Below are positions 12,297-28,033 of a stretch of DNA of 64,000 nt, one piece after another. Source of the DNA: Noviluteimonas gilva (GTDB taxonomy: Bacteria > Pseudomonadota > Gammaproteobacteria > Xanthomonadales > Xanthomonadaceae); contig NZ_WOXT01000003.1 in NCBI RefSeq assembly GCF_009740395.1, positions 62,001 through 126,000 on the forward strand, read 5' to 3'. Within the stretch, counting starts at the first letter, position 1. The number at the start of each line of letters is the position of its first letter. The notes under the pieces are model-generated. The model saw only the letters and a list, made by a program, of their open reading frames with translations. It was not told the origin of the DNA and did not search any database. The translations under genes and the position numbers were made by a program.

Positions 12297-12372
12297 GCGG
12301 TCCATCGGCGTCCCTCGCGACGCCTTCGATGCCGTGCGCCTGCGCACGCCTGTCCGCTTTCCGGAGTGTTGG

Positions 12373-14109
12373 ATGTCTTTCGATTCTTCTTTCGACGCGC
12401 CCGCGCAGCCTGCGCGGCGCCGTTTCGTGCAAGGCCTCGCGGCCGCCGGCGTGTTCGCCGGCATCGGTGCGTGGCCCTTGCGTGCCTCACCCGGCGCGAT
12501 GCGCCAGGCCGTGCTCAACGGCACGCAATTCGACCTGCGCATCGGTGAAACACCGGCCAACTTCACCGGTCGCACGCGCACCGCGATCACCGTCAACGGT
12601 TCCATTCCCGCGCCACTGCTGCGCTGGAAGGAAGGCACGACGGTGCACCTGCGCGTGCGCAACGCGCTGCCGCCGAACTCGATCCATGGGGATCGCACGT
12701 CGATCCATTGGCACGGCATCGTGCTGCCCGCGAACATGGACGGCGTGCCGGGCATCAGCTTCGATGGCATCGGGCGTGGCGAGGCCTACGACTATCGTTT
12801 CGAAGTGCGACAGGGCGGCACGTACTGGTACCACAGCCACTCGGGCTTCCAGGAACAGGCAGGCCTGTACGGGCCGCTGATCATCGATCCGATCGCGCCC
12901 GAGCCCTTCGCCTACGATCGCGAGCACGTGGTGATGCTGACCGATTGGACGGACCTGGATCCGTCCGCGTTGTTCTCGCGCATGAAGAAGATGCCGGGGT
13001 ACGACAACTACTACAAACGCACGGTGGGCGATTTCGCGCGCGATGCGAAACGCGAAGGCGCATCGAAGGCAATCACCGACCGCCGCATGTGGAACGCGAT
13101 GCGCATGACACCGACCGACCTGTCGGACGTCAACGCGAATACCTACACCTACCTGATGAACGGCGCGACCTCGCTCGCGAACTGGACCGGCCTGTTCCGC
13201 CACGGCGAAAAGCTGCGCCTGCGTTTCATCAACGGCTCGTCGATGACGTACTTCGACGTGCGCATTCCAGGCCTGAAGATGACGGTCGTCGCCGCCGACG
13301 GCCAGTCCGTCCATCCGGTGACGGTCGACGAATTCCGCATCGCGGCTGCGGAAACCTTCGATGTCATCGTCGAACCGGCGGGCCAGGATGCATTCACGAT
13401 CTTCGCGCAGGACATGGGCCACACCGGTTACGTGAGCGGCACGCTCGCCGTGCGCGAAGGCTTGCGTGCGCCGGTGCCCGCACTTGATGCGCGCGCGATC
13501 CTGACGATGGCGGACATGGGGCACGAGACGATGTCGCACGACATGGCGGGGATGGATCACGCCGCGATGGGCCACGCGATGCCTGCGCAGTCGCATCCGG
13601 CGAGCGAAACCCGCAATCCGTTCGTCGACATGCAGGCGACCGCGCCGACGCCGCGCCTCGACGATCCCGGCGTCGGCCTGCGCGACAACGGGCGCAACGT
13701 GCTGCGTTATGGAATGTTGCGAAGCCTGTTCGACGATCCCGATGGCCGCGATCCTGGCCGCGAAATCGAACTGCATCTCACCGGGCACATGGAGCGCTTC
13801 GTCTGGGGTTTCGACGGCCGCAAGTTCTCCGAGGTCGAACCCCTCCGCATGACCTACGGCGAACGCGTGCGCGTGGTCTTGGTCAACGACACGATGATGA
13901 CGCACCCGATCCACCTGCACGGCATGTGGAGCGATCTGGAGGACGAAGACGGCGCATTCCAGGTGCGCAAGCACACCATCGACATGCCGCCCGGCACGCG
14001 GCGCAGTTATCGCGTGCACGCCGACGCGCTCGGCGCGTGGGCCTACCACTGCCACCTGCTGTTCCACATGGAAGCAGGAATGATGCGCGAAGTGAGGGTC
14101 GAACGATGA
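12373..14109 (+). CDS. copA: Copper resistance multicopper oxidase CopA
   Basis: A 578-residue periplasmic multicopper oxidase (PcoA/CopA type) that oxidises Cu(I) and sequesters copper. A Tat signal is present (PARRRFVQGLAAAGVFAG, about residues 12-29). Copper ligands are seen in all four motifs: SIHWHG (about 112-117), WYHSHSG (about 155-161), HPIHLHG (near 513) and AYHCHLLFHMEAGMM near the C-terminus, the last giving the type 1 Met. A Met/His-rich segment (about residues 378-414, MADMGHETMSHDMAGMDH and on) is typical of CopA copper storage. The ATG at 12373 is preceded by GGAG. It overlaps copB by 4 bases (ATGA). Confidence 0.96.
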   Translation: MSFDSSFDAPAQPARRRFVQGLAAAGVFAGIGAWPLRASPGAMRQAVLNGTQFDLRIGETPANFTGRTRTAITVNGSIPAPLLRWKEGTTVHLRVRNALPPNSIHGDRTSIHWHGIVLPANMDGVPGISFDGIGRGEAYDYRFEVRQGGTYWYHSHSGFQEQAGLYGPLIIDPIAPEPFAYDREHVVMLTDWTDLDPSALFSRMKKMPGYDNYYKRTVGDFARDAKREGASKAITDRRMWNAMRMTPTDLSDVNANTYTYLMNGATSLANWTGLFRHGEKLRLRFINGSSMTYFDVRIPGLKMTVVAADGQSVHPVTVDEFRIAAAETFDVIVEPAGQDAFTIFAQDMGHTGYVSGTLAVREGLRAPVPALDARAILTMADMGHETMSHDMAGMDHAAMGHAMPAQSHPASETRNPFVDMQATAPTPRLDDPGVGLRDNGRNVLRYGMLRSLFDDPDGRDPGREIELHLTGHMERFVWGFDGRKFSEVEPLRMTYGERVRVVLVNDTMMTHPIHLHGMWSDLEDEDGAFQVRKHTIDMPPGTRRSYRVHADALGAWAYHCHLLFHMEAGMMREVRVER

Positions 14110-14833: not shown

Positions 14834-14866
14834 GCGGCCGGCCCAGTATTTCTACTGGCCGGCCGC
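14834..14866. promoter_or_regulatory. Extended palindrome containing a perfect CAGTA-N4-TACTG site
   Basis: The 14-mer CAGTATTTCTACTG (14844-14857) is flanked on both sides by complementary GC arms, making a 33-bp near-perfect dyad with one unpaired C on the left. The core is exactly the reverse complement of the site at 22367-22380. It ends 80 bp before the start of the exported-protein gene at 14938 and begins 21 bp after copB. It may be an operator, or it may also act as the copB terminator hairpin, although no T-run follows. Confidence 0.55.
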
Positions 14867-14937
14867 AAAGTGGAATTGCGGTGGCTCCACGCGCGCCCGG
14901 CCCGCATTGTTGGGGCAGGGCCTCCAGGAGATCCGGC

Positions 14938-15369
14938 ATGCGCACGTCCTCTCTCATCCTGTTCCTCGCCGCCATGCTCGTCGTCGGTGGCGCCACCGCT
15001 CAGTCCACGGAGGGGTTGCGGGCTCCCAGCGCGGCCGCGGAGAAGCGGCCCGGCGATGCATCGAAGAGCTGGACCATCAATTTCGATCGCACCGCCAAGA
15101 GCGATGGGCAGATCAAACTCCTCGTCTGGCAGAACGACCAGGACGCGCCGACGGAGATCGTCGTGCCGATCACGAAGGGCCAGACGGAGAACAGCATCGC
15201 GCTGCAGACCCGCGAGCTGTTCCGCGACATCCTCGGCGTGAAGGATTTCGAAACCAACAATCAGAAGGGCAACGTCTTCGTGCGCATCAAGCACGGCGAG
15301 CGGCGCTTCAGTGTCCAGGTGGCGGAGAACACCGCCGAGGGCGTGGTGATCGACCTTTACGCGCGTTGA
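14938..15369 (+). CDS. Exported hypothetical protein
   Basis: A 143-residue protein with a signal peptide (MRTSSLILFLAAMLVVGGATA, cleavage before QSTEG), so periplasmic or secreted. I do not recognise the family. The mature part has an unstructured start (GLRAPSAAAEKRPGDASK), then a compact alternating region (WTINFDRTAKSDGQIKLLVW) and a C-terminus ending in VVIDLYAR. No cysteines or metal motifs are seen. AGGAG lies 7 bases before the ATG. The BASS-type transporter gene starts 7 bp after the stop, so they form a two-gene operon, with a CAGTA-N4-TACTG palindrome 80 bp upstream. Confidence 0.75.
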   Translation: MRTSSLILFLAAMLVVGGATAQSTEGLRAPSAAAEKRPGDASKSWTINFDRTAKSDGQIKLLVWQNDQDAPTEIVVPITKGQTENSIALQTRELFRDILGVKDFETNNQKGNVFVRIKHGERRFSVQVAENTAEGVVIDLYAR

Positions 15370-15376
15370 GACGTCG

Positions 15377-16255
15377 ATGGATCCCAAACACATCGTCATC
15401 TTCGCGTTCCAGCTGAGCATCATTTGCACGGTGTTCGGCTATGGGCTGCACAGCTCGCGCAATGATCTGCTCTATCTGTGGCGCCGGCCCGGGCTGCTGG
15501 TGAAATCGCTGCTGGCGGTGTTCCTCATCATGCCGATCATCGCCGTGGTGATGGAGGAGGTCTTCGAGTTCCGCCGCACGACGGAACTTGCGCTCGTCGC
15601 GCTCGCGTTGTCGCCGTTGCCGCCGCTGCTGCCGACCAAGACGGACAAGGCCGGCGGCGAACACTCGTTCATGGTGGCGTTGCTGGTGACGCTGTCGCTG
15701 ACCGCGATCATCGCGATTCCGCTCTCGGGTTTGATCCTGGGCTGGATGTTCCACCGCGAGTTCTCCGTCTCGCTGGGCAAGATCACGCAAATCGTCCTGA
15801 TGATGATCGTGGCGCCGTTGCTGATCGGCTTCGTGGTGCGGCGGCGCTGGCCCAAGCTTGCGCGCTGGTTGATCCCCGTCGTCGGGCGGATCGCGAACAT
15901 CCTGTTACCGCTGGCGGTAGTCGCCTTGCTCGCGGCCGCATGGCGCGGGATCTGGTCGGCTTTCGGCGACGGCACCATTTTCGCCATCACCTTCTTCGTC
16001 GTCATCGGCCTGGCCGTGGGGCATTGGCTGGGGCGGCCCGAACGCGGGCATTCGGTCGTGCTCGCACTGGCGAGCGGCTGCCGCCATCCCGCGATCGCGT
16101 TGACCATCGCTTCGGCGAATTTCCCCGACCTCAACTTCGTCGGCACCGTGCTGCTCTACGTGCTCATTTCGGCGATCGTCGGCGTGCCGTACGTGATGTG
16201 GCAGCGGCGCGCGGAATGTCCGCCGTCGCCACCGCCGGCGACGCGACCGCCCTGA
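15377..16255 (+). CDS. BASS-like (bile acid:Na+ symporter fold) membrane transporter
   Basis: A 292-residue inner membrane protein with about nine or ten helices in the arrangement of the bile acid:sodium symporter superfamily. Indicators are the polar segment LSPLPPLLPTKTDKAGGEHS in the N-terminal half (a crossover-helix-like stretch) and LALASGCRHPAIALTIASAN (about residues 229-248) in the C-terminal half, where BASS proteins carry sodium-binding residues. Substrate unknown. The C-terminus is a short Pro-rich cytoplasmic tail. It follows the exported-protein gene by 7 bp. The convergent QEGLA gene ends 3 bp away. Confidence 0.78.
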   Translation: MDPKHIVIFAFQLSIICTVFGYGLHSSRNDLLYLWRRPGLLVKSLLAVFLIMPIIAVVMEEVFEFRRTTELALVALALSPLPPLLPTKTDKAGGEHSFMVALLVTLSLTAIIAIPLSGLILGWMFHREFSVSLGKITQIVLMMIVAPLLIGFVVRRRWPKLARWLIPVVGRIANILLPLAVVALLAAAWRGIWSAFGDGTIFAITFFVVIGLAVGHWLGRPERGHSVVLALASGCRHPAIALTIASANFPDLNFVGTVLLYVLISAIVGVPYVMWQRRAECPPSPPPATRPP

Positions 16256-16258
16256 CGC

Positions 16259-17560
16259 TCAGCAGCCGATGCCGGATTCGGCGATGCGCTCGTCTTCGTA
16301 TTCGACGAAGCGATCGAGGTTGAACGTGTCCAGCCGGAATTTTTCGGTCGCCGCGGAAAAGGCCATCGTGGCGAGCACGCGTTCGGGCGATTGCGCCCAC
16401 GGCGCGACGTAACGCGGACCGACGATCAATCCCGATTGGAGGAAGGGCGTCAGCGTGATGACGTCCGCGGTGTTGACGCGGCCGCAGAACAACATCCGCA
16501 GGATGTCGGCGCGGCCTTCGTGCAGCGCCTTGCAGATGAACAGGTGCACCATGATGACGCCTTCCAGGTACGCGCCATCCTTCGTGAAGCAGACCTTCCC
16601 GCGAACATCGCCACCGCGGAACACGCGCGCGGCGCTGCGATAACTTTCGACCTCGGTCTGGCCAGCGTCGAGGAAGGTGCGGAACACCTCCATGAAGTCC
16701 GCGCCCTGCAAGGCCTGGCCCACGGCCACGATGCGCAGCGCGACGCGGCGCAAGCGCTGCAGGTCGATCGAACCGGTGATGATCTCCGAGTACGTCGCCA
16801 GGCCTTCCTGCGTGCGCGTCGTGCGCGGGGAGCCCACGCCGAGCGATTTGACGTAGGGCTGGTGCTTGCCGTTGAGCAGCGTGGCCGAGTGGATGAACGC
16901 TTCGTGCTGCACGAGTTGTTCGACGTCGAGTTCGGAGAACATCGCGGTCGCGCGCAGGGTGATCTGCTTGCTGCCCGCGGCGGCCTTCGAGGCGAGGTCG
17001 GGGTTGAGGACCACCGCGACCTTGTCGTCGGTGAAGAACGGATCGATGCGTTCGCGAATGCGGACGGCGAATTGCTCGGCCGTCATGTTGCACGGCGTCT
17101 CGGGGATCAGGCGCGAATCGATCAGGTGATCGGTGGTCGCGAGCATGTCGCGCGCGGCGTCGTCCGCGGTGACGTCCTGCGATTGGTATTTCGTGTCTGG
17201 CCGGCCATAGAGCAGGATCGAACAACGCGAGAATTCGGGCGTGCCGATGCCGCGCAACATCTGCGCGGCCACGCGGTAACTCCACGCGGTTTTCCACAGC
17301 CAATGACCGATGGGATGGCCGCGATCGATGCCCTGCATGATCGCGTCGAGCGCGGCGACTTCGGCGTCGAGCGCCTGCGGTTGCGTGGTGGGTTGCGGCA
17401 ACTCCGGATTGCCCGCGCGCAGGCGTTCGAGGAAACGCGTTTCCATCGTGGCTGGCCAGCCGATCGCGTCGAGCACGCGGACCTTGCGCCCGACCTTGAC
17501 GATGGCGGCATCGGCAACGAACAGGCGCTCGAGCGCGGGATCGACGGGGACTGCGCTCAT
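16259..17560 (-). CDS. DUF1704 'QEGLA motif' protein, putative HExxxH metallopeptidase
   Basis: A 433-residue protein of the family annotated as flavohemoglobin expression-modulating QEGLA motif protein (DUF1704). It has H219-E-A-F-I-H224 (HExxxH) followed by [10 protein letters not shown] at 250-259. The same spaced motif is the zinc site of the eukaryotic tubulin-tail carboxypeptidases (MATCAP), which belong to this domain family, so a metallopeptidase role is more likely than a direct regulatory one. No signal peptide: cytoplasmic. Its ATG overlaps the aquaporin stop (ATGA), so the two are translationally coupled. The bacterial substrate is unknown. Confidence 0.85.
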
Positions 17561-18270
17561 TCCGGGCGCCTGAGCCAACGATAGAGGCCGCCACCGAGGA
17601 TGCCGCCGAGGATCGGCACGACCCAGAAGAACCACAGTTGCTGCAGCGGCTGGCCGCCGACGAACAGGGCAACGCCCGTCGAGCGCGCCGGATTCACGGA
17701 GGTGTTGGTCACCGGAATGCTGATGAGATGGATCAGCGTGAGCGCAAGGCCGATGGCGATCGGTGCGAAACCGGCGGGCGCCTTCGGATCGGTCGCTCCC
17801 ATGATCACGACGAGGAACATGCCGGTCATGACGAGTTCGCACAGCAGCGCCGCCGTCATCGAGTAACCACCCGGCGACATCCCGCCGTAGCCATTGGTCG
17901 CGAACACGCCGGCTGCGCTCGGATCGATCACCAGGTCCGCGCGGCCGTGCGCGATCTGCCACAACACGAAGCCGGCGAGCACCGCGCCGAGCGTCTGGGC
18001 GACCCAATACGGAATCAACTCCTTCGCCGGGAAACGACCGCCGGCCCAGAGCCCCGCGCTCACCGCGGGATTGAAGTGTCCGCCCGAGATGTGACCGAGC
18101 GCGAACGCACCGGTGAGCACCGTCAGGCCGAAGGCGAGCGAAACGCCCAGCAGGCCGATGCCGAGCGGATTGCCGTCGCCGCCGAAGTTCGCCGCGAGCA
18201 CTGCGCTGCCGCAGCCTCCCAGCACGAGCCAGAAGGTGCCGATGGTTTCGGCGAGCAGTCGCTTGAGCAT
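17557..18270 (-). CDS. aqpZ: Aquaporin Z
   Basis: A 237-residue six-helix inner membrane water channel of the MIP family. Both NPA boxes are present: [18 protein letters not shown] (about residues 59-76) and [16 protein letters not shown] (about 185-200), the second followed by the Arg of the selectivity filter. The N-terminus [20 protein letters not shown] is typical of AqpZ. The gene lies between an outer-membrane transporter-like gene and the QEGLA gene on the same strand with a 22-bp gap and a 4-base overlap, so the three form one operon. Confidence 0.95.
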
Positions 18271-18292
18271 GGTCGATCTCCCTGGATGTTGA

Positions 18293-19246
18293 TCAGAACG
18301 TGATCGTGCCGGTCAGCAGGACCGGGTTGCCCTCCAATCGATTCTTGACGTTGAACTCGTACAACCAGCGTGCGGAGAATTCGACCTTGCCCGTCTTGTA
18401 CGTGGCAATGGGACCAAGGGCCAACGAATGTCCCTTGAAGCCGTTGAGGCGATCGGCGGTCGGCCCGGTGTCGTTTTCCAGTTGCTCGATCCAGCCGCCG
18501 GCGCCGCCGAAACCCCAGCCGCTCTTGGTCCGCTTGATCAACAGGGTGTCGAGGCGGAACACGGCGCCATTCTGGTAGTCGGTGGCGTTGTTTTCCGTGT
18601 AGAGGTCGACGGCCGCCACCGTGGTGAACTCGAGCGTGCCGGCCTGCCCGAGCTGCGTGTACGAAACGGTCGGCGAGTACGTCCAGTTGTTGAGGCTGAC
18701 GTTGGCGAGGCGGTCGGGGTCGTACTTGCCGGTCGGCGCGTAGATGTAGAGCGCGAGCGACATGTGCTTGGTCTGGCTGAAGTGGCGGCTGGCGATGACC
18801 GGCACCACCGTCATGTCGAACAGGCCGCTTTCCGAATCGCTCGTCGACAGACCGAAGCGGCCGATGCGCACGTCCGCTTCCACGTCCACCTTCGCGAAGG
18901 GCACGGCCACCGCGGTCGCGTAATTCCAGCGGCCTTCGCCGGTGGGCCACACATAGATGCCCGTGAAGTTCAGCAATGAAAACTGCGCATCCAGGCCGAT
19001 CGCCGTGCTGCGGCCGATCGGCGTTTCGCGTTGCCCGCCGATCTGCCCGGAGTAATAGGCGTACTGGATGGCGAGGTTGAATCCCGGCGTCGGCGGAACC
19101 ACGCCCGCATACGAGGTCGCTTGCAGGCCGGTGATCGGCCGGCCGAGACCACCTTCGGTGGCTTGCGCGGGAGCCCCGGCAAACATGCAGGCACAGCCGA
19201 CAGCCAACGCGACGCTGAGGGGGAGGGAACGCGCGTTGTGCGGCAT
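18293..19246 (-). CDS. Outer membrane transporter-like protein (SphA / MetA-pathway phenol degradation family)
   Basis: A 317-residue probable outer membrane beta-barrel of the family named for phenol meta-pathway 'MetA' proteins and often labelled SphA-like transporter. Signal peptide [20 protein letters not shown] (about residues 9-28). The mature start [20 protein letters not shown] and [16 protein letters not shown], the strand pattern [20 protein letters not shown], and the last strand ending in TITF fit. It heads the aqpZ-QEGLA operon. A CAGTA-N4-TACTG-like site lies 84 bp upstream of its ATG, inside the 3' end of the adjacent kinase gene. Confidence 0.78.
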
Positions 19247-19315
19247 CTGGGTTTTCCGGCGACGTCGGGAAGGGTCCTATCCTCCTCGGCGAGGCCGCGC
19301 AGCCCAACCCGACTT

Positions 19316-20899
19316 CTACCGGACCGGCCTCAGTACTTCTACGGAAGGCTCGGCCACCGGGAAGCGCACTTCCACGCGCGTGCCGCCGCGTGGCGCGGCG
19401 CTGAATTCGACACGACCACGCAAGGTGCGTGCGCGTTCAGCCATGCTGATCATGCCCAGGCCGCGACGCGGTGCGGCGATGCGATCCTCCGGCAGTCCGC
19501 GGCCGTCGTCTTCCACGCGCAGCAAGGCCATGCCGCTGCCGTCTCGCCGCAGCTCGATGCGCACATGGCGCGCATCGGCGTGCTTCTCGACGTTGTGCAG
19601 CGCTTCCTGCGCGATGCGGAACAGGTCGAGCTTCTGCGGCTCGTCCAGATCGAAAGACTCATCGGTGTCGCAACGCACGTGCAGATCGTCGCGTGAATGG
19701 CCCGCGCACAGGCCTTCGAGCGATGCGGCCAGGCTGGTGTAGCGCAGCATGCTCGGGTGCAGTTCGTGCGAAAGGCGGCGGATGTCGTCGGACACGCCGA
19801 GCAGGCGATCCTGCAAGCCTTCGATGCGGCCGCGTCCCGGCGGATCGGCGTTGCGCTTGAGGCTGCTGAGTTCGATGGAGATCGAAGCGAGCGACTGGTT
19901 GACGTCGTCATGCAGATCGCGCGCGATGCGGCTGCGTTCGTTCTCCTGCATGTTCATCGCGCGCCGCGCGAGCTGGCTCAGCCGTTCGCCGGAATCGCGC
20001 AACGCCTCGGTGGATTCGCCGCGCTGGTCGCGCAAGGCCGTGAGCAGCAGCAGGACGACGGTCGTGCCGATCGACCACCACTGCACGTGCGAGAGCGTCG
20101 CGCGCGCCTCCGCGTGTACGAGCGGACCGATGCCGAGCGAAGTCAGCAACAGGCAACCCAACCACACCGGCACCCAGGCCACGCGCGTCCATGCCGAACC
20201 GAGTGCGTGGTCGGCCCACAACAGCAACATGATCGGCGCGAGCAGCAGCAGCGGGAACGCTTCGCCGTTGCCGAGCGGCGAGATCCACAACACCACGATC
20301 GCAAGCGCGCCGATCAGGATGATCGCCGGTTGCCAGCCATGGACATCGCTGTTGCCCGCGCGATCGTTCGCCAGGCGCACCGCGCCGGTGAAGGCGGGCA
20401 CGACGATCAGGTAGCCGATGCTGCGCGCGAGGATCTCGTGGCCATCGGTGAACGGCATGGCCATCATGCCCAGTTGCGTACTGGCCGCATGCGCCCACGC
20501 GCCGCCCGCGATCGGCAGCAGCACGCCGCACAGGAGGAGGAATTTGACCGGCTCGCAACCGTTCGGCGAAATCTTTCCATCGCGCTCGGGATGCAGCCAC
20601 CACGTTGCGACGACCACGAGCGCGAACTCGCCCATCAACATCACGCAATGCGGCAACAACTCGCGCCCCATGCCCACGCACGCCAGTGCGCTGCCCAACA
20701 ACGCTGCACCGAACACGATCGGCCACCGCGAACCGGGCGTCGCGAGCAGCCCGCACATCAGGACCGCACCGGGGATCCACACCGCCTGGCCGAGGAAGCT
20801 CGCCATCCACGGCGTCATGGTCAGCGTCTGACCGAGCGCGCCGGCCGCGGCAACGGCCGCCGGCAAAAGCCATCCCATCCGTGCAGGTTCGTGGTCCAT
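19316..20899 (-). CDS. Membrane sensor histidine kinase (NarL-type partner)
   Basis: A 527-residue sensor kinase. The first 290 residues form a membrane-sensor region of about eight helices (MASE1-like in layout) without a sizeable periplasmic domain, so it probably senses a membrane-associated or intracellular cue. A short coiled linker leads to the HisKA_3 dimerisation domain with phospho-acceptor His330 in ERSRIARDLHDDVNQ. The ATP-binding domain shows HNVEKHADARHVRIEL, VEDDGRGLPED and RRGLGMISMAERA. It is divergent from the LuxR-type regulator at 21096, its likely partner. The ATG at 20899 is chosen because the next upstream in-frame ATG (20965) adds a Cys/Arg-rich non-family stretch. Confidence 0.88.
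   Translation of the reverse strand: MDHEPARMGWLLPAAVAAAGALGQTLTMTPWMASFLGQAVWIPGAVLMCGLLATPGSRWPIVFGAALLGSALACVGMGRELLPHCVMLMGEFALVVVATWWLHPERDGKISPNGCEPVKFLLLCGVLLPIAGGAWAHAASTQLGMMAMPFTDGHEILARSIGYLIVVPAFTGAVRLANDRAGNSDVHGWQPAIILIGALAIVVLWISPLGNGEAFPLLLLAPIMLLLWADHALGSAWTRVAWVPVWLGCLLLTSLGIGPLVHAEARATLSHVQWWSIGTTVVLLLLTALRDQRGESTEALRDSGERLSQLARRAMNMQENERSRIARDLHDDVNQSLASISIELSSLKRNADPPGRGRIEGLQDRLLGVSDDIRRLSHELHPSMLRYTSLAASLEGLCAGHSRDDLHVRCDTDESFDLDEPQKLDLFRIAQEALHNVEKHADARHVRIELRRDGSGMALLRVEDDGRGLPEDRIAAPRRGLGMISMAERARTLRGRVEFSAAPRGGTRVEVRFPVAEPSVEVLRPVR
19331..19344. promoter_or_regulatory. Copy of the CAGTA-N4-TACTG motif upstream of the transporter/aqpZ operon
   Basis: CAGTACTTCTACGG matches 9 of 10 half-site positions. 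Read on the minus strand, GTAGAAGTACTGAGGCC (19326-19342) matches the site upstream of the DUF202 operon at 22369-22385 in 16 of 17 bases, with the same orientation toward its gene. It ends 84 bp before the transporter start at 19246 and lies within the last codons of the histidine kinase gene. Confidence 0.55.
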
Positions 20900-20922
20900 G
20901 CGAGCCCCGGTGTTTTCAGCTT

Positions 20923-20941
20923 CGTGTACACCTCGTACACG
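20923..20941. promoter_or_regulatory. CGTGTAC-N5-GTACACG palindrome in the kinase/regulator divergent gap
   Basis: A perfect 7-bp inverted repeat with a 5-base spacer, 23 bp upstream of the chosen kinase start and 154 bp upstream of the response regulator start. It differs from the CAGTA-N4-TACTG sites, so it may bind another regulator or mark autoregulation. If the kinase starts at 20965 the repeat would be inside its coding region. Confidence 0.4.
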
Positions 20942-21095
20942 CACCCGGCAATGACAGAAGGTCACCCTTCCGACGGATGGATGACCAATTCAAGGACATG
21001 AATGCGCATGGCGCCGTCACGCGGTTTGAACGCATTTCACGCGAGGCTCACCGGGCGCAGGGGGACCCCGATCGGACCTTGAAGGGGGACCGAAG

Positions 21096-21782
21096 ATGGA
21101 TGCTGCGAATTCCAGTGAACGCGCCCGCGTGCTGTTGGCCGACGACCACGTGTTGGTCGCGCAAGGCGTGGAAATGCTCCTGTTGGAGTGCTTCTGCAAC
21201 ATCCAACTCGTAAGCGATGGCGAGTCGTTGATCGCCGCGGTGCAGCGCGACGCACCGGACGTCGTCGTCTCCGACATCAGCATGGGCGCGATGAGCGGAC
21301 TCGAAGCGATGCGCACCGTGCGCGCGATGGGCATCGAGGTGCCGTTCGTGTTCCTGACGATGCATGCCGATCCCGAACTCGCCGCCGAAGCGATCGAAGG
21401 CGGCGCGAGTGCGTATGTTTTGAAATCCTCGGCGGGCGACGAGCTCGTACGCGCGATCCTGGAAGTGCTCGCCGGACGCACCTATGTCACGCCGACACTC
21501 GCCGCACGCACGATCCGTGCGAGCGCGCATCGCGCGCACGGTTCGCCGTCCTCGTCGCGCTCGACACCCGATGCGGCGTTGACGCAGAAGCAGCGCGAAA
21601 TCCTCTCGCGCGTCGCGCAGGGCCTGCGGTCCAAACAGATCGCCTTCGAACTGGGTCTGTCGGTGCGCACGGTCGAGTCGCACAAGTACGCGATCATGCA
21701 GGAGTTCGGGGTGCACAGCACCGTCGAACTGGTGCGCAAGGCCGCGCACGCGGGGCTGATCGCGATTGATGCGCCACCTTAG
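21096..21782 (+). CDS. LuxR/FixJ-type response regulator
   Basis: A 228-residue two-domain response regulator. Receiver domain about residues 10-130, with acidic pair D16-D17 (LLADDHV), phospho-acceptor D60 (VVVSDISMG) and the conserved Lys in AYVLKSS. A Ser/Arg-rich linker follows. The LuxR-type helix-turn-helix spans about residues 160-222 (LTQKQREILSRVAQGLRSKQ, then VRTVESHKYAIM). It is divergent from the kinase at 20899, whose HisKA_3 domain is the type that pairs with this family. It is the best candidate to bind the CAGTA-N4-TACTG sites around it. GGGGGA precedes the ATG at 21096. Confidence 0.92.
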   Translation: MDAANSSERARVLLADDHVLVAQGVEMLLLECFCNIQLVSDGESLIAAVQRDAPDVVVSDISMGAMSGLEAMRTVRAMGIEVPFVFLTMHADPELAAEAIEGGASAYVLKSSAGDELVRAILEVLAGRTYVTPTLAARTIRASAHRAHGSPSSSRSTPDAALTQKQREILSRVAQGLRSKQIAFELGLSVRTVESHKYAIMQEFGVHSTVELVRKAAHAGLIAIDAPP

Positions 21783-21792
21783 TTCATCCCCC

Positions 21793-21835
21793 TCGAACGC
21801 GCTTTGCGCGTTCGATCCCCCTTGGAAAGGGGGAT
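21793..21835. repeat. Tandem double hairpin, repeat type A
   Basis: Two adjacent perfect hairpins: TCGAACGCGC-TTT-GCGCGTTCGA (21793-21815), and ATCCCCCTT-GGA-AAGGGGGAT (21815-21835). The same architecture recurs at 28829-28869. It lies 10 bp after the response regulator stop, so it may also act as a terminator, although no T-run follows. Confidence 0.65.
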
Positions 21836-21861
21836 GAGGGACGTCGGGTACTGACGCTCCA

Positions 21862-21876
21862 CAGTAGTTTTACCTG
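21862..21876. promoter_or_regulatory. Degenerate CAGTA-N4-TAC site upstream of the receiver-only gene
   Basis: CAGTAGTTTTACCTG matches 8 of the 10 half-site positions of CAGTA-N4-TACTG. It ends 59 bp before the ATG at 21936, close to the 63-bp spacing at the DUF202 operon. An upstream TACTG (21849-21853) and this CAGTA also form an everted pair 8 bases apart. Confidence 0.4.
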
Positions 21877-21935
21877 CCCGAATTCAGTCGTTTTCACGAT
21901 AGGCGCGCGGCGCGCGTGCGTTCAGGCTGTGGGGC

Positions 21936-22361
21936 ATGCACGGGGTCGCGCCGATTCGCACGCGGGTGCTGCTGGCCGAGGACAGTCCTGTCGTCGCGCG
22001 CCAGTTGCGCACCTTGTTGGCGCAGGACTTCGAGGTCCTGGGCCTGGTCACCGACGGCGATGCCATCCTCGCCGCGCTGAACGCGTTCAAGCCCGACGTG
22101 CTCGTCACCGACATCTCCATGCCCGGCATGGATGGCCTGCAGGCCGCCGAACACGCGCTCAAGGCGCACCCGGCCCTGTGCGTCGTGTTCATCACCGTGC
22201 ACGACGAACCCGCGCTGGTCGCCCGCGCTCGCGCGCTGCCGCGCACCGCCTACGTGCTCAAGGCCGACGCCGGCGATGCGCTCGCCGCCGCGGTCGCCGA
22301 AGTGATGGCCGGCCGCTGGTATGCGTCGGCTTCGCTCAATCGCCAGGCCCTGCGCCGCTGA
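21936..22361 (+). CDS. Receiver-only response regulator
   Basis: A 141-residue stand-alone receiver domain. The acidic pair is E15-D16 (LLAEDSPVV), phospho-acceptor D59 in VLVTDISMPGMDGLQ, Thr in VVFITVHD and Lys109 in RTAYVLKADAGD. The reading frame ends at about 141 residues with no output domain, so it must act by protein contact or as a phosphate sink, like CheY- or Spo0F-type proteins. In sequence it resembles the receiver of the LuxR-type regulator 150 bp upstream. The absence of a helix-turn-helix could also mean an ancient truncation, but the sequence after the stop does not encode one. Confidence 0.85.
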   Translation: MHGVAPIRTRVLLAEDSPVVARQLRTLLAQDFEVLGLVTDGDAILAALNAFKPDVLVTDISMPGMDGLQAAEHALKAHPALCVVFITVHDEPALVARARALPRTAYVLKADAGDALAAAVAEVMAGRWYASASLNRQALRR

Positions 22362-22366
22362 GTACA

Positions 22367-22380
22367 CAGTAGAAATACTG
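22367..22380. promoter_or_regulatory. Perfect CAGTA-N4-TACTG palindrome upstream of the DUF202/formylglycine operon
   Basis: CAGTAGAAATACTG, an exact dyad apart from the 4-base centre, 5 bp after the receiver-only stop and 63 bp before the first DUF202 ATG. The core is the exact reverse complement of 14844-14857. An unknown regulator, possibly the LuxR-type protein at 21096, is the expected binder. Confidence 0.6.
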
Positions 22381-22443
22381 AGGCCCCCGACCGTGTAAAC
22401 CCCGTTGTGCGGTCCGGGCGGCGGGAACGAAGCTGGGCGCGCC

Positions 22444-22911
22444 ATGCCCCCGGTCGATCCCGCCAAGTTCAAGACTGCCGACGACATTTCGGTCGAGCTC
22501 TCCTCGCGCCGGACCGGCATGAGCTTCCAGCGCACGCGCATGAGCGCCGATCGCACGCTGATGTCGGTGATCCGCACCTCGCTGTCGCTCATCAGCTTCG
22601 GCTTCACGATCTACCAGGTGTTCACCAATTGGTTGAAGAGTCCTGGTGCGGCGATCGCGCAGGAAGCGCCACGCAATTTCGGGATTGCGCTGGTGATGGT
22701 CGGGATATTGCTGTTGATGGCCGGCATCGCCTACCACGTACGGTACATGACGCAGTTGCGCGAAGAGCGCACGCAGATGATCGCCGACGGCCTCATCCAC
22801 GGGCAGAGCGAGTATCCGGTTTCGCTCACGCTGATCTGCGCGGTGGTGCTGCTGTGCATCGGTTTGCTGGCGATCGCCAGCATGGTGTTCGACGTCCGTC
22901 CATTCGGTTAG
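22444..22911 (+). CDS. DUF202 family membrane protein (first copy)
   Basis: A 155-residue inner membrane protein with the DUF202 pattern: a cytoplasmic N-terminus with the FQRTRMSADRTLMSVIRTSL signature (about residues 28-47), then three helices (SLISFGFTIYQVFTNWL; NFGIALVMVGILLLMAGIAY; VSLTLICAVVLLCIGLLAIA). DUF202 proteins have no established biochemical role. It opens an eight-gene run to 27555, with a perfect CAGTA-N4-TACTG site 63 bp upstream. A second, divergent DUF202 copy occurs at 24800 in the same run. I chose the ATG at 22444 because it starts just before the conserved cytoplasmic segment. Confidence 0.85.
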   Translation: MPPVDPAKFKTADDISVELSSRRTGMSFQRTRMSADRTLMSVIRTSLSLISFGFTIYQVFTNWLKSPGAAIAQEAPRNFGIALVMVGILLLMAGIAYHVRYMTQLREERTQMIADGLIHGQSEYPVSLTLICAVVLLCIGLLAIASMVFDVRPFG

Positions 22912-22932: not shown

Positions 22933-23475
22933 ATGAAAGCGCTCATTCCCCTTGCACTGACCGCGTTGCTCGCCGGTTGCGCATCCACGCCGGACGTCAC
23001 GGTCGACCACGATCCGTCCGCCGACTTCTCGCGCTTCCGCACCTACTACTGGGCGCAGGAACTGCAGATCAACAATCCGCTCGCGAAGCAACGCATCATC
23101 GCGGGCATCGATGCGCGCATGGCCTCGCGCGGATTCACGCGGCAGGAAGGCAGCGGCGACATCGCGCTCGTCGGCAACGTCGCGACCAGCCAGAAACAGA
23201 CGCTCGACACCTTCTACACCGGCACCGGCATGGGCGGTTGGGGATGGGGGCCGGGTTGGGGCTACGGCGGCATGGGCAGTTCCACCACGCGCGTGAACAC
23301 CTACACGGTCGGCACGCTCGTGCTCGACATGTTCGACACTTCGACGAAGAAGGCGGTGTGGCGCGGCGTCGCGAGCGGCACGGTGTCCGATTCGCCGCAG
23401 CGCAACGAAACCGCGGTCAACGCCGCGCTGGACAAGATGTTCACCAGCTTCCCGCCGGGCGCGGCCGCGAAATGA
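22933..23475 (+). CDS. DUF4136 lipoprotein
   Basis: A 180-residue predicted lipoprotein: signal MKALIPLALTALLAGC with lipobox LAGC (Cys16). The DUF4136 domain follows, with DHDPSADFSRFRTYYWAQ near the start and a C-terminal NETAVNAALDKMFTSFPPG. A Gly/Trp-rich loop (TGMGGWGWGPGWGYGGMGSS, about residues 96-115) interrupts the domain, as in many members. It is probably periplasmic, attached to the outer membrane. It overlaps the formylglycine-generating enzyme gene by 4 bases (ATGA), so the two are coupled in expression. Confidence 0.85.
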   Translation: MKALIPLALTALLAGCASTPDVTVDHDPSADFSRFRTYYWAQELQINNPLAKQRIIAGIDARMASRGFTRQEGSGDIALVGNVATSQKQTLDTFYTGTGMGGWGWGPGWGYGGMGSSTTRVNTYTVGTLVLDMFDTSTKKAVWRGVASGTVSDSPQRNETAVNAALDKMFTSFPPGAAAK

Positions 23476-24428
23476 GTGCGCAACCCGCGATGCGAACCCA
23501 CGACGCGCACGCCGGCATGGTGTGGATTCCCGGACGCACGTTCCGCATGGGATCGGACCATCACTATCCGGAGGAAGCGCCGGCGCATCGCGTCACGGTC
23601 GATGGATTCTGGATCGACGCATCGCCGGTGACGAATGCGCAGTTCCGCGCATTCGTCGGAGCCACCGGCCACGTCACGCTCGCCGAAGAAGCGCCGAAGG
23701 CCGAAGACTATCCGGGCGCGTTGCCGGAGATGTTGGTCGCTGCATCGGTCGTGTTCGTGCCGCCGGCGCATCGCGTGGGCCTGGACGATCACTATCGCTG
23801 GTGGCAGTTCATTCGCGGCGCCGACTGGCGCCATCCGCTCGGTCCGCATACCTCGATCGAGGGCAAGGACGATCATCCCGTCGTGCATGTCGCCGCGCGC
23901 GACGTCGATGCGTACGTCGCATGGGCGGGCAAGCGCGTGCCGACCGAAGCCGAATGGGAATGCGCGGCGCGCGGTGGATTGGACGAAGCCGAATTCGCGT
24001 GGGGGGATGAGTTCTCGCCCCACGGGCTGCATCGCGCGAATACCTGGCAGGGTGAATTTCCCTGGCAGAACCTCGCGCAGGATGGGTACATCGGCACCTC
24101 GCCGGTCGGTGCATTTCCTGCGAACGGCTACGGCTTGTTCGACATGATCGGCAACGTGTGGGAATGGACGTCGGACTGGTATCGCCCGCGCCATCCTGCC
24201 GAACCGCAGAAGGCCTGCTGCATTCCCGAAAACCCGCGCGGCGGACCGCTGGAGGCGAGCTTCGATCCCGCGCAACCGCAGTTGCGCATTCCGCGTCGCG
24301 TGATGAAGGGCGGCTCGCACCTGTGCGCGCCGAACTACTGCCGTCGCTATCGCCCCGCTGCGCGCATGGCGCAGCCCGTCGACACCTCGACCTCGCACCT
24401 GGGCTTCCGCTGCGTCCTCGGCGGCTGA
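23472..24428 (+). CDS. Formylglycine-generating enzyme (SUMF1/FGE family) with intact active-site cysteines
   Basis: A 318-residue member of the formylglycine-generating enzyme family, which converts a Cys in sulfatase-type targets (CxPxR) to formylglycine using copper and oxygen. Family marks: MVWIPGRTFRMGSDHHYPEE, PVTNAQFRAFV, RVPTEAEWECAARGG, GLFDMIGNVWEWTSDWY and GGSHLCAPNYCRRYRPAAR. The last contains C285 and C290, the two cysteines of true FGE that many SUMF1-like proteins (EgtB, PvdO types) lack. No signal peptide: cytoplasmic. No sulfatase or CxPxR protein occurs in the window, so its substrate lies elsewhere. It is coupled to the DUF4136 gene by overlap. Confidence 0.9.
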   Translation: MSAQPAMRTHDAHAGMVWIPGRTFRMGSDHHYPEEAPAHRVTVDGFWIDASPVTNAQFRAFVGATGHVTLAEEAPKAEDYPGALPEMLVAASVVFVPPAHRVGLDDHYRWWQFIRGADWRHPLGPHTSIEGKDDHPVVHVAARDVDAYVAWAGKRVPTEAEWECAARGGLDEAEFAWGDEFSPHGLHRANTWQGEFPWQNLAQDGYIGTSPVGAFPANGYGLFDMIGNVWEWTSDWYRPRHPAEPQKACCIPENPRGGPLEASFDPAQPQLRIPRRVMKGGSHLCAPNYCRRYRPAARMAQPVDTSTSHLGFRCVLGG

Positions 24429-24437
24429 GTCACACGT

Positions 24438-24803
24438 ATGGAAGAAATTTTCCGCGATTTCAGCCAGCACATCGCCCTCGCGCTGGAAGCGATCTCCGTG
24501 CTGATGATCGCCATCGGCGCGGTGGAAGCGTTCGTGCGCGTGCTCGTGCCGCCGCTGCGCAACATCGCTTCGCACGGGCGGCGGCGCGCGGCGTGGCTGA
24601 GCCTGGCGCGCTGGTTGCTGCTGGGCCTGGAATTCATGCTCGCGGCCGACATCGTGCGCACCGCGATCGCACCGACGTGGGACGACATCGGCAAGCTCGC
24701 GTCGATCGCCGTGATCCGGACGTTCCTCAACTTCTTCCTCGAACGCGACCTGGACGCGGCGGCGCGCGAAGGCGCGACCGACGCCGTGGAGGCCGGGCAA
24801 TGA
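24438..24803 (+). CDS. DUF1622 family membrane protein
   Basis: A 121-residue inner membrane protein of the DUF1622 family: an N-terminal amphipathic start (MEEIFRDFSQHI), then helices ALALEAISVLMIAIGAVEAF and LLLGLEFMLAADIVRTAIAP. The family's acidic/basic segment DIGKLASIAVIRTFLNFFLE follows and the tail is charged. DUF1622 proteins have no assigned function. They have been seen near arylsulfatases and DUF202 proteins, which fits this neighbourhood (recollection, not checked). It ends in an ATGA overlap with the second DUF202 gene. Confidence 0.85.
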   Translation: MEEIFRDFSQHIALALEAISVLMIAIGAVEAFVRVLVPPLRNIASHGRRRAAWLSLARWLLLGLEFMLAADIVRTAIAPTWDDIGKLASIAVIRTFLNFFLERDLDAAAREGATDAVEAGQ

Positions 24804-25204
24804 GCACGCAACCCACTTCGAACGAACTGGCGGCCTCGCGCACGGGCCTGGCCGACCTGCGCTCGCACCTGGCGAACGAGCGCACGCACCTGGCGTATTT
24901 GCGCACGTGCGTGTCGCTGATCGGCTTCGGCATCACCCTGAATCGCTTCTCGGTGTTCCTGCAGCAGGGCGACAAGCTGCAGGTGGGCCAGAAGATCGGG
25001 GTGCTGCGCGACTCGGCCAACGTCGGCCTGGGCATGGTCGTGCTCGGGATCCTGCTCGCATGCTGGTCGCTGTATCGCTACAAGCACGTCAACACCGACA
25101 TCAAGAATGCGACCTTCCGCCCGATGGATCGCGCCGTGATCGGGATGACGCTGATTTTCCTCCTGCTCGGTGGCGTGACCGCCGCATGGTTGTTCCATGT
25201 CTGA
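24800..25204 (+). CDS. DUF202 family membrane protein (second copy)
   Basis: A 134-residue inner membrane protein with DUF202 signature LANERTHLAYLRTCVSLIGF (about residues 24-43). Three helices include VGLGMVVLGILLACWSLYRY and MTLIFLLLGGVTAAWLFHV. It is a shorter and clearly different paralogue of the protein at 22444, so the operon carries two DUF202 members that could pair. Its start overlaps the DUF1622 stop by 4 bases and its end overlaps the HAD gene by 8, showing tight coupling. Confidence 0.87.
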   Translation: MSTQPTSNELAASRTGLADLRSHLANERTHLAYLRTCVSLIGFGITLNRFSVFLQQGDKLQVGQKIGVLRDSANVGLGMVVLGILLACWSLYRYKHVNTDIKNATFRPMDRAVIGMTLIFLLLGGVTAAWLFHV

Positions 25205-26114
25205 CCTGCCGTCGTGGCGCGACACGCAAGCCCGGCAGGCGATCGTCGATTTCGTGCAACGCACGACGACGACCGGGTCGCCGGAGTTCGTCGCGGCGGG
25301 CGATCGCATCGCGGTGTTCGACAACGATGGCACCCTGTGGTCGGAGCAGCCGCTGTATTTCCAGTTCCTGTTCGCGCTGGATCGCGTGCGCGCGCTTGCG
25401 GCGCAGCATCCGGAGTGGAAGACCATCGAGCCCTACAAGTGGGTGATCGACAACGACATGAAGTCGTTGGTGGCGGCGGGCGAGAAGGGCCTGCTGCCCA
25501 TCATCGCCGCCACGCACGCGGGCGTAACGACGGAACAGTTCACCGACATCGTGCGTGATTGGTTGGCCGATGCGCGGCATCCGGTCACCCGGCGCCGCTA
25601 CGACGCGATGGTGTTCAAGCCGATGCAGGAGTTGATGGTTTTCCTGCGGGCGAACGGTTACGGCACGTGGATCGTGTCGGGCGGTGGGCAGGAGTTCCTG
25701 CGCGCGTGGGTCGAAGCGACCTACGGAATTCCGCCGCAACAGGTGATCGGTAGCTACGCGGGGTTGAAGTACGTCACGGGCGACCGGCCTTCGATCATGA
25801 AGACCGAGCAGCCCGAGCTCGTCGACGATCACGCGGGCAAGCCGGTCGGCATCCAGCGTTTCCTCGGGCGGCGGCCGGTGATGGCGTTCGGCAACTCCGA
25901 CGGCGATTTCGAAATGCTGGAATGGACCACGACGGGCGAGGGCCCACGCTTCGGCGCGCTGTTGCACCACACCGATGGCGAGCGCGAATTCGCCTACGAC
26001 CGCGCTTCGATGGTCGGCAAGCTCGATCGCGGGCTGGACGAAGCGGCCCAACGCGGCTGGGTGGTGATCGACATGGCGCGCGACTGGGAGACGGTGTACC
26101 CGGAGGCGACCTAG
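25197..26114 (+). CDS. HAD-superfamily hydrolase (phosphoserine phosphatase-like)
   Basis: A 305-residue HAD hydrolase. Motif I is VFDNDGTLWSEQ (D41, D43), motif II is the Ser in WIVSGGGQEFLRAW, and motif IV is AFGNSDGDFEMLEW, giving the acid residues that hold magnesium. A helical cap lies between motifs I and II, as in the phosphoserine phosphatase-like C1 group. No signal peptide. Probably a phosphomonoesterase; the substrate is not evident. It overlaps the second DUF202 gene by 8 bases and is followed after 7 bp by a polytopic membrane protein. Confidence 0.87.
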   Translation: MSDLPSWRDTQARQAIVDFVQRTTTTGSPEFVAAGDRIAVFDNDGTLWSEQPLYFQFLFALDRVRALAAQHPEWKTIEPYKWVIDNDMKSLVAAGEKGLLPIIAATHAGVTTEQFTDIVRDWLADARHPVTRRRYDAMVFKPMQELMVFLRANGYGTWIVSGGGQEFLRAWVEATYGIPPQQVIGSYAGLKYVTGDRPSIMKTEQPELVDDHAGKPVGIQRFLGRRPVMAFGNSDGDFEMLEWTTTGEGPRFGALLHHTDGEREFAYDRASMVGKLDRGLDEAAQRGWVVIDMARDWETVYPEAT

Positions 26115-26121
26115 GGCACCG

Positions 26122-27285
26122 ATGCTTTCCGACAGTTTCTCCCTGTTGCGCGGTGGCCCGGTGTATCGACTGATGCATTGGCTCGGCGCATTGCGCCCCG
26201 GCGTGCCGACGAAGTGGCTGCTGCTCGCATTGATCGTCGTGGTGTCCTTCGTGCCGCTGATGGTGCTCGCCGCGATCGAGGGAATGTTGCTGCCATCCGC
26301 CGATCGCATCGCCTTGTTGGGCGATTACGCAGTGCTCGCGCGTTTGCTCGTCGCGGTGCCGATCATGGTCCTCGGCGCCGGCGCCTGCGACCACGTGCTG
26401 CATGCGACCGTGCGTTACATCGGGCGGTCCGGCCTGGTGCCGGGCGCTTCGCACGATGCGTTCCAGCGCCTGGTGCAGCACGGGCACGCGATCCGCGATT
26501 CCCACATTCCCGAAACAATGTGTGCGCTCATCGCTTTGCTCTCGGCGTTCTCGACGAACGCAAAGTTTTCGCATGTGTCGGGTTTCACGCATTGGGCGAC
26601 GGTCGAAGGCTCCCTGTCGAAAGCGGGCGAATGGTTCGCGGCGGTGTCGGCGCCGGTGTTCCGCTTCGTCGCGCTGGTGTGGCTCTGGCGGTTCCTGGTG
26701 TGGGCGTACCTGCTGTGGCGTTTCTCGCGCCTTCGCCTGGCCATCTTCGCCGCGCATCCCGACGGCGCAGGAGGGCTGGGATTCCTTGCGCCGGCGCAGT
26801 CGTGGTTCGCCGTCATGGCGCTGGCCGCCAGCACGATCTTCTGCGGCACCGCGCTGGTGCAGATGGAATACGCGCACGCCACGTTGCAATCGTTCCAGTG
26901 GGAAATGCTCGGCGTGATCGTCGGCAGCGTGCTCGTCGTGTTCTCGCCGTTGTTGTTCGTGATGCGCCCGCTGGTGCGCACGCGACGGCACGACATGCAT
27001 GAGCTCGGCGCGCTCGGGCAGGCGGCATCGCGTGCGTTCGCGGCGCGCTGGGAGAATCCCGATCCCACGCAGTCGGGCGATGCCCTGCTCGAAAGCCCCA
27101 ATCCCTCCGCCGTCGCCGACTTCACGGCGATGTACGCGACGGCGCGATCGATGGCGGTTGTGCCCGTCAACAAACAGGCGCTGCTGAGCGTCGCGGTCGT
27201 CGCGGCGCTGCCGATGCTGCCGCTGGTGTTGCACGCGGTGTCCATCGACGAGTTGCTGCGGCGCGTGCTGGGCGTGCTCGCCTGA
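26122..27285 (+). CDS. Six-helix inner membrane protein of unknown function
   Basis: A 387-residue membrane protein that I do not recognise. Helices are visible at about residues 33-56 (WLLLALIVVVSFVPLMVLAA), 72-95, 180-200 (FVALVWLWRFLVWAYLLWRF), 228-250, 262-282 (LGVIVGSVLVVFSPLLFVM) and the C-terminal 350-385. A large cytoplasmic or periplasmic loop (about residues 96-175) is polar, and another (283-345) is charged. No enzyme motif is seen. It is the seventh gene of the DUF202/formylglycine run, 7 bp after the HAD gene and 60 bp before dodecin. Confidence 0.75.
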   Translation: MLSDSFSLLRGGPVYRLMHWLGALRPGVPTKWLLLALIVVVSFVPLMVLAAIEGMLLPSADRIALLGDYAVLARLLVAVPIMVLGAGACDHVLHATVRYIGRSGLVPGASHDAFQRLVQHGHAIRDSHIPETMCALIALLSAFSTNAKFSHVSGFTHWATVEGSLSKAGEWFAAVSAPVFRFVALVWLWRFLVWAYLLWRFSRLRLAIFAAHPDGAGGLGFLAPAQSWFAVMALAASTIFCGTALVQMEYAHATLQSFQWEMLGVIVGSVLVVFSPLLFVMRPLVRTRRHDMHELGALGQAASRAFAARWENPDPTQSGDALLESPNPSAVADFTAMYATARSMAVVPVNKQALLSVAVVAALPMLPLVLHAVSIDELLRRVLGVLA

Positions 27286-27865: not shown

Positions 27866-28033
27866 GGGCGGAGCTCCGTTGCGGGCGACGCGGCGATTCT
27901 GTCACGCCATGCGCGCCACGCGCTCGGAAACTTCCACTCGCCATTCGCGACCGCGCCCGCGAGCGAAAGCTGACCGGCGTCGCACGAGTTCTTTTCGCAA
28001 TCGCCTTAGGCTTTGCGCGAAAGGAGATCAGGG

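What the first reader, a model, noticed from the sequence alone, without database searches (positions are those of the whole stretch)
14834..22385. A shared palindrome, CAGTA-N4-TACTG, marks four promoters around a histidine kinase/LuxR-type regulator pair
Seen: CAGTATTTCTACTG (14844-14857) is the exact reverse complement of CAGTAGAAATACTG (22367-22380). The minus strand at 19326-19342 (GTAGAAGTACTGAGGCC) matches 22369-22385 in 16 of 17 bases. A weaker copy is at 21862-21876. The copies lie 59-84 bp upstream of start codons: exported protein plus BASS-type transporter, transporter/aqpZ/QEGLA operon, receiver-only protein, and DUF202/formylglycine operon. The two regulators between them (kinase 19316, LuxR-type 21096) are the obvious candidates. 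NarL/FixJ-type regulators are known to bind short dyads of this kind. That these sites define one regulon is inference.
Basis: partly seen in the sequence, partly recalled or inferred. Interest (0 to 1): 0.78.

Follow-up and report, generated by a model that had tools for sequence, protein, structure and literature searches.

The report
Shared switch for sulfatase genes
A short mirror-image DNA word beside a bacterial sensor-regulator pair recurs in front of arylsulfatase genes, the gene for the enzyme that activates them and several exported proteins of unknown role, so it most likely marks one gene-control circuit.

Summary
The word refines to CNGTARWWYTACNG. Of 30 genome hits with up to one mismatch, the 14 best-scoring all lie upstream of an ORF: four in the window, three Pfam-Sulfatase genes (3 of 3 over cut-off), six DUF1254/DUF1214 genes, one decarboxylase. 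Site 22367 precedes an operon with a formylglycine-generating enzyme, which sulfatases need. In 297 family genomes, all 10 with three or more exact sites carry an ortholog of the LuxR-type regulator at 21096 (25 of 297 do); in two genera the 6 bearers have sites and 28 non-bearers none. In 16 of 16 named relatives a strong site lies within 89 bases after luxR. A second A+T-rich element at fixed offset suggests an activated promoter. Best reading: the kinase/LuxR-type pair switches on a sulfatase/FGE/DUF1254 regulon that includes an HTH-less receiver protein, possibly feedback. Binding, direction and signal are untested. Against: raw counts are not above control, two of seven exact hits are in 16S rRNA genes, and 13 of 25 bearers have only 0-1 exact sites.

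The parts
14844..14857 (.). operator CAGTATTTCTACTG before 14938/15377 genes
   Evidence: matrix 21.2; same place in G003 and, before other gaps, G001
14868..14885 (+). second promoter element (AAGTGGAATTGCGGTGGC)
   Evidence: fixed offset
14938..15369 (+). 143-residue protein with likely signal peptide, no Pfam or NCBIfam match
   Evidence: signal peptide by eye
15377..16255 (+). SBF/BASS-type transporter
   Evidence: Pfam SBF
16259..17560 (-). MATCAP (QEGLA-type) protein
   Evidence: Pfam; NCBIfam QEGLA below cut-off
17557..18270 (-). aquaporin-like protein
   Evidence: two NPA motifs by eye; no family search run
18293..19246 (-). Phenol_MetA_deg-type (outer-membrane-like) protein, first gene after site 19331
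   Evidence: Pfam
19303..19320 (-). second promoter element (GGTAGAAGTCGGGTTGGG)
19331..19344 (.). operator (minus strand CCGTAGAAGTACTG), overlaps kinase 3' end
   Evidence: matrix 18.7; conserved in G001-G004
19316..20965 (-). membrane histidine kinase, HisKA_3 type (start codon uncertain)
   Evidence: Pfam HisKA_3 and HATPase_c
21096..21782 (+). LuxR-type (NarL/FixJ) response regulator, proposed binder
   Evidence: Pfam Response_reg and GerE; co-occurrence
21862..21875 (.). operator CAGTAGTTTTACCT before the receiver-only gene
   Evidence: matrix 19.1; counterpart in 16 of 16 named loci
21886..21903 (+). second promoter element (AGTCGTTTTCACGATAGG)
21936..22361 (+). receiver-only protein resembling the regulator without its HTH
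   Evidence: Pfam Response_reg only; sequences
22367..22380 (.). operator CAGTAGAAATACTG before the DUF202/FGE operon
   Evidence: matrix 21.2; counterpart in 15 of 16 named loci
22391..22408 (+). second promoter element, weaker (CCGTGTAAACCCCGTTGT)
   Evidence: not significant with the matrix (p 0.11)
22444..22911 (+). DUF202 protein
   Evidence: Pfam on 22405-22911
22933..23475 (+). DUF4136 lipoprotein-like
   Evidence: Pfam
23472..24428 (+). formylglycine-generating (sulfatase-modifying) enzyme, FGE domain and C-x4-C pair
   Evidence: Pfam FGE-sulfatase; sequence
24438..24803 (+). DUF1622 protein (operon membership inferred)
   Evidence: Pfam
24800..25204 (+). second DUF202 protein (operon membership inferred)
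   Evidence: Pfam
25197..26114 (+). HAD-type hydrolase (operon membership inferred)
   Evidence: Pfam

Best explanation
CNGTARWWYTACNG is the operator of the NarL/FixJ-type regulator at 21096. The membrane kinase at 19316 (signal unknown) phosphorylates it. It then binds the palindrome, about 67 bases before the transcription start, and probably the weaker element near -41, and activates promoters with poor core elements. Targets in this genome: three arylsulfatases, their formylglycine-generating activator in the DUF202 operon, DUF1254/DUF1214 proteins, two operons with transport-type genes, and a receiver-only relative of the regulator that could draw off phosphate as feedback. Shown by computation: shared site, placement, conservation, co-occurrence with the regulator. 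Inferred: the binder, activation rather than repression, phosphorylation, feedback, transcription starts.
For: 14 of 14 hits scoring 18 or more are upstream of an ORF, 9 of them sulfatase or DUF1254/DUF1214 genes. A matrix from luxR-locus sites only finds a site (15 or more) before 31 of 54 sulfatase/DUF1214 matches in five genomes, in G000 3 of 3 sulfatases over cut-off and 7 of 8 DUF1214 genes, against 8 such hits in 1.08 Mb of distant loci. All 10 of 297 genomes with at least three exact sites have the 21096 ortholog; within genera g30 and g17, 6 bearers have sites, 28 non-bearers have none. Sites after luxR in 16 of 16, and before DUF202 in 15 of 16, named loci. Second element at fixed offset: none of 20,000 shifted controls reached it in 14 promoters of G000.
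Against: Raw counts do not exceed the reversed pattern. 13 of 25 ortholog bearers have 0-1 exact sites; of the 10 such loci read, 8 hold a high-scoring variant, G122 and G274 none; three were not read. 23 of 54 sulfatase/DUF1214 matches lack a site. Outside the locus, a Stenotrophomonas-type genome (G279) has sites before mixed genes, only one place being DUF1254. Bearers are related, so p-values overstate. Relatives outside the family have the pair without sites. No binding data.
Confidence: 0.8

Rival explanations
1. The sites form one regulon, but another transcription factor (the LuxR-type protein at 28013 or an unlinked one) binds them; the 21096 pair is only a target or travels with the cluster.
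For: Sites flank luxR, so the locus could be only a target; the cluster may be inherited as a block, which would give the same co-occurrence. In the window no site scores above -6.4 in the gap between kinase and luxR.
Against: luxR is the one DNA-binding gene recognised in every one of the site-bearing relatives' loci by the queries used (query list limited). G274, whose regulator differs at four of 14 positions of the helix stretch SVRTVESHKYAIMQ, has no site in the genome by exact pattern although its locus has FGE, sulfatase and DUF1254 homologs.
Confidence: 0.13
2. The sites are real operators of 21096, but the protein represses the targets, or activates some and represses others.
For: Nothing computed here measures direction.
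Against: The palindrome sits well upstream of the predicted start and a second element lies near -41, with poor core elements, which is the usual layout of activated promoters (recalled).
Confidence: 0.15
3. The palindromes are chance, repeat elements or terminator hairpins.
For: Counts near control; 14844 sits in a GC-rich inverted repeat; two exact hits are in 16S rRNA genes; one hit with one mismatch lies before a lexA-like gene.
Against: Gene content, promoter spacing, conservation across genera and co-occurrence.
Confidence: 0.02

Closest known systems
NarL/FixJ-type two-component systems (NarXL, UhpBA, FixLJ; NCBIfam MctS/MctR best)
   Same: HisKA_3 kinase and receiver-GerE regulator; short inverted-repeat site; nearest solved chain by sequence is NarL 1a04
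   Different: Scores are far below every equivalog cut-off shown (regulator 126 against 300 for MctR; kinase 128 against 700 for MctS). Site and target genes differ from the known ones (recalled).
LexA regulon of Xanthomonadaceae (box recalled as TTAG-N6-TACTA)
   Same: Similar TAGTA/TACT letters; one genome hit, TTAGTAGTATTACTGCTAA, lies before a lexA-like gene followed by a recA-like gene (named by eye)
   Different: The regulon sites do not carry the TTAG/CTAA ends, and the targets are not SOS genes.
Sulfatase and formylglycine-generating enzyme pairs
   Same: Sulfatase domain with C-T-A-G-R, and FGE domain with a Cys pair
   Different: Here they share an operator with a two-component pair, DUF202 and DUF1254/DUF1214 genes; no paper on that was found in the searches made.

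Membership tests
NarL/FixJ-type response regulators | Receiver domain plus LuxR-type (GerE) helix-turn-helix | tested here: met
   Pfam Response_reg 81 bits, GerE 61 bits, over cut-offs
NarL/FixJ-type response regulators | Adjacent HisKA_3-type kinase | tested here: met
   HisKA_3 50.5 and HATPase_c 51.4 bits at 19316-20965
NarL/FixJ-type response regulators | Binds a short inverted repeat at target promoters | not testable with these tools
   Only co-occurrence and placement
A named system (NarL, UhpA, FixJ, MctR, ErdR and others in NCBIfam) | Reaches the curated equivalog cut-off | tested here: not met
   None of the 25 best families shown reaches its cut-off
LexA regulon | LexA box before SOS genes | tested here: not met
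   Of the 30 hits only the lexA-recA one looks of that kind; box recalled
Cys-type sulfatases | Sulfatase domain and C-x-[P/A]-x-R signature (recalled) | tested here: met
   Pfam Sulfatase over cut-off and C-T-A-G-R in 3 of 3
Formylglycine-generating enzymes | FGE domain and the C-terminal Cys pair (recalled) | tested here: met
   276.6 bits; GGSHLCAPNYCRRYR
Formylglycine-generating enzymes | Converts the sulfatase Cys to formylglycine | not testable with these tools
   none

The most novel reading that the evidence does not exclude
A dedicated two-component circuit of Lysobacteraceae switches on a set of sulfatases together with their own activating enzyme and the DUF1254/DUF1214 proteins through a two-element promoter, and carries a promoter-linked, HTH-less copy of the regulator as built-in feedback; this would place the unassigned DUF1254/DUF1214 families in sulfate-ester metabolism.
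Probability: 0.5. Interest if true: 0.68.

Novelty: new member of a known kind. Interest (0 to 1): 0.6.

Why it matters
If true, sulfatases and their maturation enzyme answer to one sensor, the unassigned DUF1254/DUF1214 and DUF202 proteins gain a first regulatory context, and bearers and non-bearers inside one genus offer a natural comparison for finding the signal.

Tried and rejected
Raw pattern counting was not informative. The first pattern CAGTA-N4-TACTG counts two hits inside 16S rRNA genes. The first null drew random segments from loci that hold true sites, so its 8.6% at up to 2 mismatches is an upper bound; one search replaced it, with distant loci of mixed composition as background. 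A downstream-element matrix trained on Stenotrophomonas-type promoters gave p below 0.001 (better of two orientations, uncorrected) at only 6 of the 32 G000 sites scored; the direct A+T test on 14 promoters was clearer. Relatives outside the family (L083-L087, L112) have kinase and regulator, but none of the sulfatase, FGE or DUF1254 queries matched there and no site reached 15. No other palindrome that looked like an operator was recognised in the G274 locus; only GC-rich short repeats recur. Genes before DUF3604 (C6:161488, 16.1) and DUF3300 (C2:756650, 16.0) sites are possible weak targets, left open. A coding hit scores 17.4 (C1:1132742, inside a 445-codon ORF). The phosphate-sink idea is inference; the one search on it listed one paper, seen as a listing only. 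ORFs and starts come from my own simple caller and reading; some over-long ORFs overlap sites.
Full report
OBSERVATION. As a bare pattern the finding is weak: seven window matches with up to two mismatches against 3.33 expected, and genome counts not above the reversed pattern. Of the seven exact CAGTA-N4-TACTG hits in the 3.39 Mb genome, two lie in 16S rRNA genes. The case rests on where hits are, not how many.

REFINED SITE. Thirty-one sites upstream of sulfatase and DUF1214 genes in the five genomes of the genus (found) give CNGTARWWYTACNG and a matrix. The window's four score 18.7-21.2. Up to one mismatch to the pattern gives 30 places in the genome. Fourteen score 18 or more. All lie upstream of an ORF start, at up to 217 bases: four in the window, three sulfatases, six DUF1254/DUF1214 genes, one Orn/Lys/Arg decarboxylase (window sites). 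Among the other 16 are a site before a seventh DUF1254 gene (17.4), a coding hit (17.4), a lexA-box-like hit (16.7), possible weak sites before DUF3604 and DUF3300 genes, and hits below 16, mostly inside ORFs. The matrix was trained partly on these very sites, hence the next test.

INDEPENDENT TEST. A matrix from luxR-locus sites only was applied upstream of every Sulfatase match (30) and every DUF1214 match (26, less two fragments that I left out). A score of 15 or more was found for: G000 sulfatase 3 of 4 (the fourth is under the Pfam cut-off), DUF1214 7 of 8 (the eighth starts 11 bases after another); G001 8 of 9 and 1 of 3; G002 4 of 9 and 3 of 7; G003 2 of 4 and 2 of 6; G004 1 of 4, with no DUF1214 match. 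Total 31 of 54, against 8 such hits in 1,076,944 bases of 62 distant loci. One of the misses, a G004 sulfatase, sits inside an operon whose first gene has the site.

WHO BINDS. The exact refined pattern occurs in 51 of 297 family genomes; the reversed control occurs 0-16 times per genome without regard to the regulator. The 21096 ortholog (E <= 1e-50) is in 25 of 297. Mean sites: 2.68 with it, 0.14 without. Genomes with at least three sites: 10, all with the ortholog (hypergeometric p 2.6e-12, which ignores relatedness); at least two: 12 of 17. Inside genera: g30 (17 genomes) bearers 6, 10, 3, 8, the other 13 none; g17 (17) bearers 2 and 4, the other 15 none; g64 (12) bearers 0, 1, 1, 1, 0, the other seven none; g27 (8) bearers 1 and 1, one of six others 1. 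Against: 13 of 25 bearers have 0-1 exact sites. I read the locus in 10 of these 13: eight hold at least one high-scoring variant outside the strict pattern (such as AAGTAAATCTACTT or CAGTATTTTTACTG), G122 and G274 none; G147, G258 and G281 were not read. G274's regulator (about 47-50% identical) differs at four of the 14 residues SVRTVESHKYAIMQ, the presumed DNA-reading helix, while its locus keeps FGE, sulfatase and DUF1254 homologs; one case, only suggestive.

LOCUS CONSERVATION. In the 16 named loci L067-L082 (mostly Stenotrophomonas) the usual order is kinase, luxR, site, receiver-only gene, divergent membrane gene, site, DUF202, sometimes a sulfatase, FGE, DUF1622-like, Phenol_MetA_deg-like, DUF4136. 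A site scoring 18.8-22.7 lies 13-89 bases past the matched luxR region in 16 of 16; a site lies before DUF202 in 15 of 16 (L078 shows no DUF202 there). Flanks vary while the sites stay.

RELATIVE'S REGULON. In G279 (g30) seven places outside the locus were read: one precedes two DUF1254 genes; one each precedes an autotransporter-like gene, a TonB-dependent receptor and a PAS kinase; three have no clear target. In G317 one site precedes a 789-residue sulfatase. So the gene set differs between genera.

PROMOTER. In 37 aligned promoters of the genus (33 sulfatase/DUF1214, 4 window; orthologs included), columns 25-40 from the site start hold an A+T-rich second element, roughly GTWGWWWTTCGGTWGC, and columns 61-66 an A...T like the two strongest -10 bases. 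In 14 promoters of G000 alone the A+T share at columns 27-33 is 0.56, against 0.22 on average (at most 0.31) in the other stretches measured, and 0 of 20,000 circular-shift controls reached the best stretch. At least three of the 14 do not show the element clearly. If transcription starts near column 73-75, the palindrome is centred near -67 and the second element near -41 (inference).

CHEMISTRY. The FGE protein has the FGE domain and a Cys pair, the three sulfatases C-T-A-G-R. That such sulfatases need FGE is established knowledge (recalled); an operator shared by enzyme and activator fits. The receiver-only protein resembles the regulator's receiver and linker and stops before the HTH; a damping role is inference.

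LITERATURE. Nine searches of the held full-text library. No paper held: DUF1254 with arylsulfatase and response regulator; any two of DUF1254, DUF1214, sulfatase; any of six site sequences; arylsulfatase with regulation, Xanthomonas and LuxR. The listings looked unrelated from titles and abstract starts. DUF1254 alone gave five papers; in two of them, PMC6710368 and PMC3751524, I saw one passage each, a table row. I found no report of this regulon in those searches; most subscription papers are not held.

VERDICT. Observation confirmed, interpretation supported and extended: a regulon new to the searches made, of a known regulator type, with a well-supported operator, a likely binder and an unknown signal. 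Genus names for the window's genome rest on shared contig lengths and identity with L. dokdonensis DS-58 (G003/L065) and L. lactosilyticus A6 (G001/L066).

Noticed in passing
L068 (JAHREJ010000048.1): A contig filed as Bacillus subtilis SK7B5 carries the Stenotrophomonas-type locus (luxR 62% identical, same gene order, sites); probably a contaminated or mislabelled assembly.
   Followed up: no
window 26122-27285; homologs in 15 of the 16 loci L067-L082: Membrane-type protein without Pfam or NCBIfam match; in the relatives it is divergent from the DUF202 operon, with the operator between them.
   Followed up: partly
L289 (G033:C1:2352000-2370000): A second regulator (59% identical) beside DUF202, sulfatase and FGE genes, with two strong sites 46 bases apart before DUF202.
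   Followed up: partly
L001 and L002 (G000 C1:197156 and C1:485231): Two exact CAGTA-N4-TACTG hits lie inside 16S rRNA genes and are not operators.
   Followed up: yes
L310:554-3934 (G000 C6): A site scoring 16.1 precedes a DUF3604 gene; a second FGE-domain protein is encoded nearby.
   Followed up: no
window 12334-14109: Multicopper-oxidase-like gene (named by eye) next to the cluster, also in the stretches from G001-G003, L290 and L292; FGE is a copper enzyme (recalled), so the company may mean something.
   Followed up: no
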